64,000 nt of DNA from NCBI GenBank assembly GCA_944380265.1, contig CALWGY010000003.1:62001-126000 (forward strand), written 5' to 3'. Positions 7,011 through 9,528 of this stretch are shown piece after piece. Source of the stretch: an uncultured Clostridia bacterium. GTDB lineage: Bacteria; Bacillota; Clostridia; Christensenellales; UBA1242. The number at the start of each line of letters is the position of its first letter. Position 1 is the stretch's first letter. Position numbers and translations under genes: made by a program. The notes under the pieces are model-generated. The model was not told the origin of the DNA, did not search any database, and saw nothing but the letters and a program-made list of their open reading frames with translations.

Positions 7011-8297
7011 TTATGGTGTTATGCGGTTTGGGCCACGGAAGATAAATTCAACTTCCTTAATTGTTGGAATGTTTAGTAGTAACATTGTAATTCTGTCAAG
7101 CCCAAGCCCAAAACCACCATGTGGTGGGCAACCATATTTGAAAAAGTCTAAGTAAAACTTAACATCTTCACCCAAACCTTTTTCATCGGCTTGTGCTTTA
7201 AGCTTATCATAGCGGTGTTCACGTTGTGCACCTGTTGTTATTTCTACACCACGCCAAATTAGGTCGTAACCTTGTGGCACGCCATTTTTTCTCATATGAT
7301 AAAAGGCACGTTTATCTTTTGGATAGTCGGTTATGAACATAAATTCATGGCCAAATTTGTCCATTGAAAGTTTGTAAACAAGTTTTTCGGCTTCGGTTGA
7401 CAAATCAAGTTTGTCTTCTTCTGTTTCTTGATAACCATATTTAACAATTTCGCTATAAACTTGTTTTAGCGTCATGCGAGGGAAAGGTTTTTTTGGAACA
7501 ACAATTTCTGTTCCAAACACTTCTTTAACAATTTCGCCATATTCATTTTTTGTTTTTTGCAAAGCATAAATTAACAAATCTTCTTCTAAGTTCATAACAT
7601 CTTCAAAACTGTCGATGTAACTAAACTCCACGTCAAATCCAGAAAACTCGGTGGAATGGCGGTTTGTGTAAGATTGTTCAGCCCTAAACACTGGGCCACT
7701 TTCAAAAATTCGTTCAAAACCTGCCGCCATTGCCATTTGTTTGTAAAATTGTGGGCTTTGCGCCAAATATGCTTTTCTATCAAAATATTTAACTTCAAAA
7801 ACATCGGCTCCACTTTCGCTTGCCGCACCAATAAGTTTTGGTGTGTGAATTTCAATGAAATTGTTTTTAACCAAAAATTCACGCATTGCATTTGTAAAAC
7901 AACTTTGAACTTTAAAAATTAAGGTGTTTCTGTCACTTCTTAAATCAATCCAACGGTAGTCTAGTTTGTTATCAATGTTTGCATCGTCCATAATTGGAAG
8001 TGCTTCGGCAACACTTAAAACTTCCAAACTTGTTGGAATAAATTCTTGTCCGCCCATTTTAACATATTCGCTTTTAACTGCTGTTCCTGTAACGCTAACA
8101 ACAGAATGAGCAATAACACCTTTTAGGCTTTCAACAATTTGAGGCATTTTTTCTTTTTCAATTGTTACCTGAATTTTTCCAGTTATGTCTTTAACAACCA
8201 AAAAAATCATGTATTTTGAATCTCTAATTTTTTCAATCCAACCTTTAATTGTGCATGGTTTGTTAAATTCTAGTTCGTTAATTAAAACTCTGTTCAT
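7011..8297 (-). CDS. aspS: Aspartyl-tRNA synthetase, archaeal-type (AspRS2)
   Basis: A 428-residue class IIb synthetase lacking the GAD insertion of the usual bacterial AspRS (about 590 residues). It is the short archaeal-genre form, often nondiscriminating in bacteria (charging both tRNA(Asp) and tRNA(Asn)). The OB domain comes first (GWIEKIRDSKYMIFLV), then motif 2 (FRAEQSYTNRHSTEFSGFDVE) and motif 3 (GFGLGLDRITMLLL). AGGAG precedes the ATG at 8297. A promoter, short leader ORF and terminator immediately upstream form a candidate attenuator. Whether it discriminates cannot be read from sequence alone. Confidence 0.93.
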   Translation of the reverse strand: MNRVLINELEFNKPCTIKGWIEKIRDSKYMIFLVVKDITGKIQVTIEKEKMPQIVESLKGVIAHSVVSVTGTAVKSEYVKMGGQEFIPTSLEVLSVAEALPIMDDANIDNKLDYRWIDLRSDRNTLIFKVQSCFTNAMREFLVKNNFIEIHTPKLIGAASESGADVFEVKYFDRKAYLAQSPQFYKQMAMAAGFERIFESGPVFRAEQSYTNRHSTEFSGFDVEFSYIDSFEDVMNLEEDLLIYALQKTKNEYGEIVKEVFGTEIVVPKKPFPRMTLKQVYSEIVKYGYQETEEDKLDLSTEAEKLVYKLSMDKFGHEFMFITDYPKDKRAFYHMRKNGVPQGYDLIWRGVEITTGAQREHRYDKLKAQADEKGLGEDVKFYLDFFKYGCPPHGGFGLGLDRITMLLLNIPTIKEVEFIFRGPNRITP

Positions 8298-8320
8298 TGT
8301 TTTTTCTCCTATTTTTTACT

Positions 8321-8347
8321 AAAAAAGCCCTTAAAACATTTAAGGGC
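8321..8347 (-). terminator. Intrinsic terminator (attenuator) in the aspS leader
   Basis: On the minus strand GCCCTTAAA-TGT-TTTAAGGGC is followed by six T, 24 bases before the aspS start codon. It lies downstream of the leader promoter, not of the preceding gene, so it acts on aspS transcription. The A-run and GCC just 5' of and inside its left arm can instead pair with an upstream GGCTTTTTT. Confidence 0.85.
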
Positions 8348-8416
8348 GATTTTTTTACAAATTTTCAGATTGCGTAAGTGAAACTTTTAAAAAAGCCTAC
8401 CCATTTTTATGTGTAA

Positions 8417-8458
8417 TTAAAAGTTATTGCAATCATCAATTTTAATAATTTTTTTCAT
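8417..8458 (-). CDS. Putative aspS leader peptide MKKIIKIDDCNNF
   Basis: A 13-codon ORF with AAAGGA five bases before its ATG and a TAA stop, located between the promoter at 8479-8508 and the terminator at 8321-8347. Codons 8-9 are GAT GAT (Asp-Asp) and 11-12 are AAT AAC (Asn-Asn). The downstream genes make the synthetases for exactly these two amino acids. GATTGC, spanning codons 9-10, is complementary to GCAATC at 8368-8373. That pairing crosses, and so excludes, the antiterminator GGCTTTTTT:AAAAAAATCGCC. A ribosome stalled at the Asp or Asn codons would mask GATTGC and favour read-through. This is an inference from sequence; short Asp/Asn runs can arise by chance at this base composition. 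Confidence 0.6.
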   Translation of the reverse strand: MKKIIKIDDCNNF

Positions 8459-8478
8459 ATTATTCCTTTTGCTAAAAT

Positions 8479-8508
8479 ATAATACCACTTAAAAAAGTTA
8501 AAAGTCAA
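8479..8508 (-). promoter_or_regulatory. Promoter of the aspS leader
   Basis: On the minus strand TTGACT (8503-8508), an 18-base spacer and TATTAT (8479-8484) place the transcript start just before the AAAGGA of the leader ORF. The preceding gene ends at 8531, so aspS-asnS forms its own unit. Confidence 0.7.
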
Positions 8509-8530: not shown

Positions 8531-9442
8531 TTATTTTTTAAATTCTTTTGGAATTTTTGCAATTTGTTCCTTAGAATTTTTTGCCAATTTTTCGTAATAT
8601 TGCCATTGTTCTTTTGTTAAATTGAAATGATTTTGTTTTAAAGCTTCCAACACTTTACACATAATAACTTCGTGATTTTGCAAAATTGTTTTTTGTTGTT
8701 GATAAGTCATGTAATGCAAATAAGACTTAAAATCAGCAAAAGCAGAAAAAATATCACGTGTAATATCTAAGTCCGACAACGAATATTTTGCAGTTCCAAC
8801 TTCCAAGTCAACAAACGAAAAACCTGCAGTTTTATCAAACAAAAAGTTTTCGGACCTGCCATCATCAATGTAAACATGATTTAAAGTTAAAACCTTAAAA
8901 TCTCTAACAAATTTATTAAAGAGCCTTTGATCGGCTTCTTTAAGTTGTTTTTGCATTGCAACGTTGTATCTATACATTGCATAACCAATTTGTTGCATTT
9001 CGGAAGGTTTAATTTCGCTTTCGTTTGCAATTTCAACATCGGTGTTGTTGTTATCTAAAACAGTTGTGTTAAAGGCAATTGCCCTGGCTGTGGAAGCATA
9101 GTGAACACTAAGCACACTTCCTTTTGCCCTTTCTTCAATTTTATAAAAATGATGTTTTCCTTTGTAACAACACAAAAGTTCTGGCGTGTTAACATTTTGT
9201 TCATTTTTAAGTTTGTTTAAAAACTCTTTTTGTTCTTCAAACACTTCTTCCAAATGAACACCTTGCTTGTCAACGTCAATTTCCGAAATATTTTTTAAAA
9301 TAACATAATCACCAAAATAGTAACAATATGAGTGCGCACCTTTTGTGTTTGGTTTAACACGCTTACCCCTTATGGCATATAGGTGCCCATGAATCATTTT
9401 GTTAAGCCTTATGTTTTCAATAAGTAATTCGCCTGCTGTCAT
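8531..9442 (-). CDS. Putative phosphotransferase with aminoglycoside/choline-kinase-like fold
   Basis: About 303 residues from ATG 9442, chosen because AAGGAGAAGGGG lies just upstream. The C-terminal half carries a kinase-like catalytic pattern, HVYIDDGRSENFLF followed 9-10 residues later by FVDLE. This resembles the H-x-D...N and D-x-D/DFG segments of APH/choline-kinase folds. The N-terminal half has YYFGDYVILKNIS and YKIEERAKGS, possible nucleotide-lobe strands. The fold assignment rests on these motifs alone and the substrate is unknown. No resistance or sugar-metabolism genes are adjacent. Confidence 0.5.
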   Translation of the reverse strand: MTAGELLIENIRLNKMIHGHLYAIRGKRVKPNTKGAHSYCYYFGDYVILKNISEIDVDKQGVHLEEVFEEQKEFLNKLKNEQNVNTPELLCCYKGKHHFYKIEERAKGSVLSVHYASTARAIAFNTTVLDNNNTDVEIANESEIKPSEMQQIGYAMYRYNVAMQKQLKEADQRLFNKFVRDFKVLTLNHVYIDDGRSENFLFDKTAGFSFVDLEVGTAKYSLSDLDITRDIFSAFADFKSYLHYMTYQQQKTILQNHEVIMCKVLEALKQNHFNLTKEQWQYYEKLAKNSKEQIAKIPKEFKK

Positions 9443-9528
9443 TATCCCCTTCTCCTTATAAATTAGCATAGCACAAAAAACCCGTTGATTCAATGGTTAA
9501 TTACTTTTTAAAATAATAAAATTTTTGT

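What the first reader, a model, noticed from the sequence alone, without database searches (positions are those of the whole stretch)
8297..8508. Candidate ribosome-mediated attenuator with Asp/Asn leader peptide before aspS-asnS
Seen: on the minus strand a promoter (TTGACT-18-TATTAT), AAAGGA, a 13-codon ORF MKKIIKIDDCNNF, then GGCTTTTTT, GCAATC, AAAAAAATCGCC, a GCCCTTAAA/TTTAAGGGC terminator with six T, and aspS. GATTGC in codons 9-10 can pair with GCAATC (8368-8373). GGCTTTTTT (8389-8397) can pair with AAAAAAATCGCC (8345-8356), which includes the terminator arm. The two pairings cross, so they exclude each other. Known: leader-peptide attenuation needs codons of the regulated amino acid, and Firmicutes synthetases normally use T-boxes. 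Inferred: stalling at Asp-Asp or Asn-Asn codons masks GATTGC, lets the antiterminator form and raises aspS and asnS. A dual-amino-acid leader before both cognate synthetases would be new to me.
Basis: partly seen in the sequence, partly recalled or inferred. Interest (0 to 1): 0.9.

Follow-up and report, generated by a model that had tools for sequence, protein, structure and literature searches.

The report
Asparagine leader peptides control Asn-tRNA genes
In a family of uncultured gut Clostridia, tiny genes full of asparagine codons (sometimes with aspartate codons) sit before the genes that make asparagine-loaded tRNA and look like ribosome-read switches that turn those genes on when asparagine runs short; the reported site is a weathered copy of this switch.

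Summary
Comparative searches uncovered a family of Asn/Asp leader-peptide attenuators in the window's bacterial family: SD, short ORF with a run of Asn (or mixed Asp/Asn) codons, ACRCAU...AUGGGU, intrinsic terminator, then aspS2 (nondiscriminating AspRS), aspS1, gatCAB or asnA. The own genome has two textbook copies (MVIIVLNNNNNNNFELTQ before aspS1; MIRVINNNNNNNFLTH before gatC). Over 42 leaders, the antiterminator pairing is far stronger with the leader's own terminator than with swapped ones (0 of 20,000 permutations). At aspS2 the leader replaces a T-box. G303 has MRFIVDNNNDNNLKNA before the same aspS2-asnS operon. The window copy keeps the ORF, the ACACAT-ATGGGT signature at family spacing and a specific helix 1:2, but its antiterminator is not better than chance, and its nearest relative (G002) keeps promoter and terminator without the ORF. 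It is a diverged, possibly decaying, member. Leader-peptide attenuation is known, also in Firmicutes (His, Leu); I found no report of an Asn or Asp/Asn version. A second conserved short ORF (NAVAGE) before asnA is unexplained.

The parts
8479..8508 (-). sigma-A type promoter TTGACT-18-TATTAT (extended TG)
   Evidence: aligned counterpart TTGACT-18-TATTAT in G002
8464..8469 (-). Shine-Dalgarno AAAGGA of the leader ORF
8417..8458 (-). leader peptide ORF MKKIIKIDDCNNF
   Evidence: 0 of 20,000 shuffles give such an ORF; family of Asn/Asp leaders
8423..8437 (-). sensing codons Asp-Asp-Cys-Asn-Asn (region 1)
   Evidence: counterpart of the N-run of the family; 20 nt from the last Asn codon to GGG, inside the family's range 9-29
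8399..8414 (-). ACACAT...ATGGGT signature: apical part of helix 1:2 and start of region 2a
   Evidence: 1 match in the window, 0.11 expected; conserved in the family with covarying pairs
8382..8425 (-). helix 1:2 core AACTTTTAA / TTAAAAGTT, flanked by GATTGC 8434-8429 / GCAATC 8373-8368
   Evidence: duplex -14.4 kcal/mol; 0.3-1.2% of shuffles reach it; stronger than nearly all cross-pairings with other leaders
8344..8402 (-). candidate antiterminator: GGGTAGGCTTTTTTA (8402-8388) with TAAAAAAATCGCCC (8357-8344)
   Evidence: about -10 kcal/mol but not better than cross-pairings or shuffles: unproven
8321..8347 (-). intrinsic terminator, 9 bp stem plus six T
   Evidence: terminator at the same place in G002
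7011..8297 (-). aspS2, nondiscriminating-class aspartate--tRNA(Asn) ligase
   Evidence: NCBIfam NF003483, 448.7 bits
5413..6798 (-). asnS, asparagine--tRNA ligase
   Evidence: NCBIfam NF003037 651.6 bits, TIGR00457 610 bits

Best explanation
The site is a diverged member of a lineage-specific family of ribosome-mediated transcription attenuators that sense charged tRNA-Asn (and, at aspS genes, probably tRNA-Asp). Region 1, the Asn/Asp codons plus ACRCAU, can pair with region 2 (AUGGGUUYC + UUGUUGUUG); region 2a (GGGUUYC) can pair instead with the 5' arm/loop of the terminator (region 3); region 3 pairs with region 4 as terminator. When Asn-tRNA is short, a ribosome stalls on region 1, frees 2a, the antiterminator forms and the gene is read; when Asn-tRNA is plentiful, the ribosome runs to the stop codon on or beside 2a, blocks it and transcription stops. 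In the window the same layout stands before aspS2-asnS, with codons DDCNN. Shown by sequence: parts, codon runs, covarying pairings, exchange with T-boxes. Inferred: stalling, response to Asn/Asp, and that the window copy still works.
For: Own genome: MVIIVLNNNNNNNFELTQ + terminator before aspS1 and MIRVINNNNNNNFLTH + terminator before gatC. Same genus: aspS1 leaders MVKVMVNNNNNNNFFVTQ (G002) and MTKVILVNDNNNNNFFVTQ (G003). Family: asnA preceded by an Asn leader in 22 of 27 genomes with upstream sequence; aspS2 with leaders such as DNNNDNN (G303), NNNDNND (G309), NDNNNDNN (G306), NVNDDDD (G076); gatC/gatA leaders. Among one unselected locus per genome in the first 30 genomes of the pattern scan, all 8 in-frame short D/N-run ORFs precede asnA or aspS2. 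Antiterminator: own pairing -14.7 kcal/mol against -10.2 permuted (sd 0.40), 0 of 20,000; helix 1:2 -14.6 against -12.0, 0 of 20,000. Modelled pairing of 2a with the terminator: 0.88 with a ribosome on the Asn codons, 0.23 (median 0) with one at the stop codon. Leaders and T-boxes exclude each other: 28 related aspS2 genes carry 21 T-boxes, 3 leaders, 4 neither, none both. Asp codons in the run: 9 of 21 aspS leaders, 1 of 29 asnA/gatC leaders (p 0.0009). Window copy: ORF (0 of 20,000 shuffles), ACACAT-ATGGGT, spacing 20 nt (family mode), helix 1:2 specific to itself.
Against: Window copy only: antiterminator not better than cross-pairings; a covariance model of the Asn leaders gives it 9.2 bits, best locally and correctly aligned, but far below chance matches elsewhere in the window (up to 22 bits); its stop codon lies 14 nt before 2a, the extreme of the family (shared only with G309's leader), and modelling shows no response to ribosome position; G002 lost the ORF. 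Family: no expression data; sequences are related, so permutations overstate independence; the pairing regions were chosen after seeing several examples.
Confidence: 0.77

Rival explanations
1. The window copy is a decaying remnant: the Asn leader of an ancestor has lost its codon run (DDCNN instead of N7) and its antiterminator, and now only the constitutive terminator with partial readthrough remains, as already in G002.
For: G002 keeps promoter and terminator but no leader ORF; window antiterminator at chance level; 9.2 bits in the family model; no modelled response to ribosome position.
Against: Intact SD and ORF with four D/N codons; helix 1:2 matches its own partner and few others, which a decaying copy would not maintain; spacing and ACACAT-ATGGGT signature kept; mixed D/N codons recur at other aspS2 genes.
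Confidence: 0.3
2. Simple terminator of the upstream gene or constitutive attenuator without a sensor; the short ORF is chance.
For: AT-rich leader, modest fold z-score; G002 lacks the ORF.
Against: A promoter lies before the terminator and there is no room for one after it; 0 of 20,000 shuffles give such an ORF; own genome and family carry the same architecture with long Asn runs.
Confidence: 0.08
3. A reduced T-box riboswitch that reads uncharged tRNA directly.
For: T-boxes stand at this gene in many relatives.
Against: No Rfam T-box match in the window at the gathering score, nor below it in the leader; only about 150 nt of leader, no T-box sequence; leaders and T-boxes exclude each other.
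Confidence: 0.02

Closest known systems
Classical amino-acid leader-peptide attenuators (trp, his, phe, leu operons of Proteobacteria; own knowledge)
   Same: short ORF rich in the regulated residue, mutually exclusive helices, intrinsic terminator
   Different: Asn or mixed Asp/Asn codons; clade of Bacillota; antiterminator partner lies in the terminator loop/5' arm
His leader peptides before hisS/hisZ of bacilli (Naville and Gautheret 2010, PMC2965389) and the Leu-rich attenuator peptide of the S. aureus branched-chain amino acid genes (title and abstract of PMC5794164)
   Same: leader peptides in Firmicutes; the His case concerns a synthetase gene where others use a T-box
   Different: other amino acid, other genes; here a multi-gene set for one aminoacyl-tRNA (aspS1, aspS2, asnS, gatCAB, asnA)
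[quoted passage not shown] 2012, 2013; as cited in PMC4206432 and PMC4052509)
   Same: same pathway and signal, terminator/antiterminator switch, one leader answering to two tRNAs
   Different: senses uncharged tRNA directly without translation; here the sensor is a translating ribosome

Membership tests
Ribosome-mediated (leader-peptide) transcription attenuator | translatable short ORF with SD enriched in codons of the regulated amino acid | tested here: met
   window: 4 of 13 residues D/N, 0 of 20,000 shuffles; family: D/N runs of 4 or more
Ribosome-mediated (leader-peptide) transcription attenuator | intrinsic terminator between ORF and gene, downstream of a promoter | tested here: met
   family
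Ribosome-mediated (leader-peptide) transcription attenuator | antiterminator exclusive with helix 1:2, supported by covariation | tested here: inconclusive
   met for the family as a whole (0 of 20,000 permutations); helix 1:2 met but antiterminator at chance level in the window copy
Ribosome-mediated (leader-peptide) transcription attenuator | regulated genes use the sensed amino acid | tested here: met
   aspS2, asnS, aspS1, gatC, gatA, asnA by NCBIfam
Ribosome-mediated (leader-peptide) transcription attenuator | expression rises when the amino acid's tRNA is uncharged | not testable with these tools
   needs reporters or RNA-seq
Asn-leader family described here | ACRCAU...AUGGGU signature about 20 nt after the codon run | tested here: met
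   8414-8399; spacing 20 nt
Asn-leader family described here | recognised by a model built from the other leaders | tested here: not met
   9.2 bits, not among the matches of the 64 kb window
T-box riboswitch | Rfam RF00230 structure and T-box sequence | tested here: not met

The most novel reading that the evidence does not exclude
One clade of Bacillota has replaced T-boxes by a regulon of leader peptides that watches every route to Asn-tRNA(Asn) (AsnA, nondiscriminating AspRS + GatCAB, AsnRS), and at the AspRS genes, including the window's aspS2-asnS, mixed Asp/Asn codons make one leader a sensor of two amino acids, matching an enzyme that charges two tRNAs.
Probability: 0.45. Interest if true: 0.78.

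Novelty: new variant of a known kind. Interest (0 to 1): 0.64.

Why it matters
Amino-acid leader peptides are thought rare in Firmicutes, where T-boxes rule. Here orthologous genes in one family carry either a T-box or an Asn leader, never both in the set tested, so the evolutionary exchange of an RNA sensor for a ribosome sensor can be followed case by case. It also links the regulation of direct and indirect Asn-tRNA formation and offers a possible two-amino-acid sensor at a synthetase with two tRNA substrates.

Tried and rejected
Second hit of the leader DNA in the own genome (C10:5231): AT-rich chance match inside unrelated sequence. T-box or other Rfam element in the leader: none. Judging by the closest relatives alone (G002, G015, G010, G023) suggested refutation: none has the ORF; wider sampling changed this. 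Covariance model of the Asn leaders as a finder of the window copy: failed on 64 kb because the model is AT-rich and weak in structure. Distribution outside the family: 297 genomes drawn from the order (22 of them of the window's own family); the five hit genomes outside the family whose loci were read show N-termini of ordinary proteins, a sixth (G448, L376) was not read; so no leader was seen outside this family at that stringency (six AAY codons). Literature searches for Asn leader peptides found none; the library holds open-licence papers only.

Full report
Observation. The minus-strand leader was read directly and every claimed element is at the stated place. The promoter and the terminator are found independently. 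There is no room for a promoter between the terminator (8347-8327, T-run to 8321) and the aspS start codon (8297), so the operon must be transcribed through the terminator: an attenuator position. [quoted passage not shown] TIGR00458 just under its cut-off) and AsnRS. The genome has 1.2 Mb, lacks asnA at the threshold used, and has a separate bacterial-type AspRS and gatC.

First look at relatives. In the same genus, G002 keeps the upstream gene, the promoter (TTGACT-18-TATTAT) and a terminator before aspS2, but no leader ORF rich in Asp or Asn codons. G015, G010 and G023 have no such leader ORF either. Many family members have a T-box there.

The turn. G303 (another genus) has TTGACA-17-TATAAT, AGGAG, the ORF MRFIVDNNNDNNLKNA, a complementary GGGTTGTTGTTGTC, a terminator and then aspS2 and asnS. 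A scan of 309 family genomes for SD + ATG + five Asp/Asn codons gave, in one locus per genome for the first 30 genomes with a locus, eight in-frame short ORFs; all eight lie before asnA or aspS2. Further loci bring the number of analysed leaders to 42, window included, from about a dozen genera. asnA has such a leader in 22 of the 27 genomes whose upstream DNA is held: most were found by the D/N-run script, three by the covariance model (G010, G179, G168) and two by eye (G258, G020). gatC or gatA follows MLSNNNNNNNNSKHMR, MIAFIINNNNNNNLNHISM, MIITIINNNNNNNLNHI and others.

The own genome. It carries two textbook copies outside the window: MVIIVLNNNNNNNFELTQ, TTTGGGTTTTC...GGGAAAACCTAA terminator, before aspS1 (C2:50646-50697), and MIRVINNNNNNNFLTH, ATGGGTTTACTTTTTTTAAG, terminator, before gatC (C3:44098-44144). 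The aspS1 leader is kept in G002 (MVKVMVNNNNNNNFFVTQ) and at an aspS of G003 (MTKVILVNDNNNNNFFVTQ). So this organism's lineage uses Asn leaders, and the window's ATGGGTAGGCTTTTTTAAAAG closely resembles the gatC leader's ATGGGTTTACTTTTTTTAAG.

Mechanism tests. Region 2 of each leader pairs with its own terminator 5' arm/loop at -14.7 kcal/mol on average, against -10.2 (sd 0.40) when terminators are swapped; none of 20,000 permutations reaches the observed value. Examples: GGGUUCC with GGAACCC (G063), GGGUUUC with GAAAUCC (asnA group), CAAGGUUG with CAGCCUUG (G064), UUGGGUUUUC with GGAAAACCUAA (own aspS1). Helix 1:2 also prefers its own partner (-14.6 against -12.0, 0 of 20,000), and the apical ACRCAU/AUGGGU pairs keep pairing through changes on both sides in three positions. 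Folding with a ribosome placed on the Asn codons gives 0.88 mean pairing of 2a with the terminator; with the ribosome on the stop codon 0.23 (median 0). This is the logic expected of ribosome-mediated attenuation. The gatC and aspS1 leaders have little helix 1:2 and seem to rely on the terminating ribosome alone. Caveat: sequences are related, so permutation counts overstate independence, and the regions were defined after several examples had been seen.

T-box exchange and Asp codons. In the 28 closest aspS2b genes, 21 have a T-box, 3 a leader, 4 neither, none both (T-boxes by a sequence pattern). Asp codons inside the run occur in 9 of 21 leaders of aspS genes but 1 of 29 of asnA/gatC (Fisher p 0.0009; 0.0019 without the window; tallied by hand; not corrected for kinship). 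This fits sensing of Asp-tRNA as well where an AspRS is regulated, but is indirect.

The window copy. For: an SD-led ORF with DD, NN and at least four D/N in 0 of 20,000 shuffles; ACACAT-N4-ATGGGT, expected 0.11 times in the two strands of the window and found once, at the right spot; 20 nt from the last Asn codon to GGG, the commonest value of the family; helix 1:2 of -14.4 kcal/mol, reached by 0.3 to 1.2% of shuffles and by few cross-pairings. Against: the antiterminator (about -10 kcal/mol) is no better than chance, the stop codon lies 14 nt before 2a, an extreme shared only with G309's MMHVNNNDNNDF, the state model shows no ribosome effect, and the family model scores it at 9.2 bits, correctly aligned but not detectable in 64 kb. 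My reading: a diverged member, about two chances in three still functional, otherwise on the way to the state seen in G002.

Known context. Leader peptides replacing T-boxes in Firmicutes are on record for hisS/hisZ in bacilli (PMC2965389), and a leucine-rich attenuator peptide in S. aureus (abstract of PMC5794164). T-boxes control tRNA-dependent amidation in C. acetobutylicum, one of them with two codons for two tRNAs. Nondiscriminating AspRS plus GatCAB as the indirect route to Asn-tRNA is established. No Asn or Asp/Asn leader peptide was found in the papers searched. Hence: new variant of a known kind.

Noticed in passing
L392-L411 (for example L393, L394, L405, L408), between the Asn attenuator and asnA: A second SD-led short ORF with nearly invariant codons AAY GCC GTR GCG GGC GAR (peptide ...NAVAGE/D..., often followed by D/N codons); the DNA pattern occurs in 19 family genomes, nearly all before asnA, once before aspS2. 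A downstream CUCCUUAAA can pair with the end of this ORF (own pairing better than permuted, p 0.007) or with the Shine-Dalgarno of asnA (not better than permuted, the SD being constant): candidate translational attenuator in series; the role of NAVAGE is unexplained.
   Followed up: partly
L401:626-1381, L403:648-1409, L411:652-1434: Proteins of 252-261 aa directly behind the NAVAGE ORF, in two cases between it and asnA, without any Pfam match.
   Followed up: no
L005 (G002), leader of aspS2: Promoter spacer CTTATTGTGCTTTTAA and leader TTAAAGCACAATAAG form a long inverted repeat; the leader also holds AATAAGGG, complementary to the terminator arm CCCTTATT. Possibly a different control element replaced the leader peptide.
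   Followed up: no
L316 (G020) and L314 (G258), before asnA: Degenerate leaders MITKTFCVVNNNANNTLEPR and MQINNLKINNFITDVL with terminators, showing that eroded Asn runs like that of the window occur elsewhere.
   Followed up: no
window 8531-9493 (-): Gene upstream of the leader (320 aa) has no Pfam or NCBIfam match; a homologue stands at the same place in G002.
   Followed up: no
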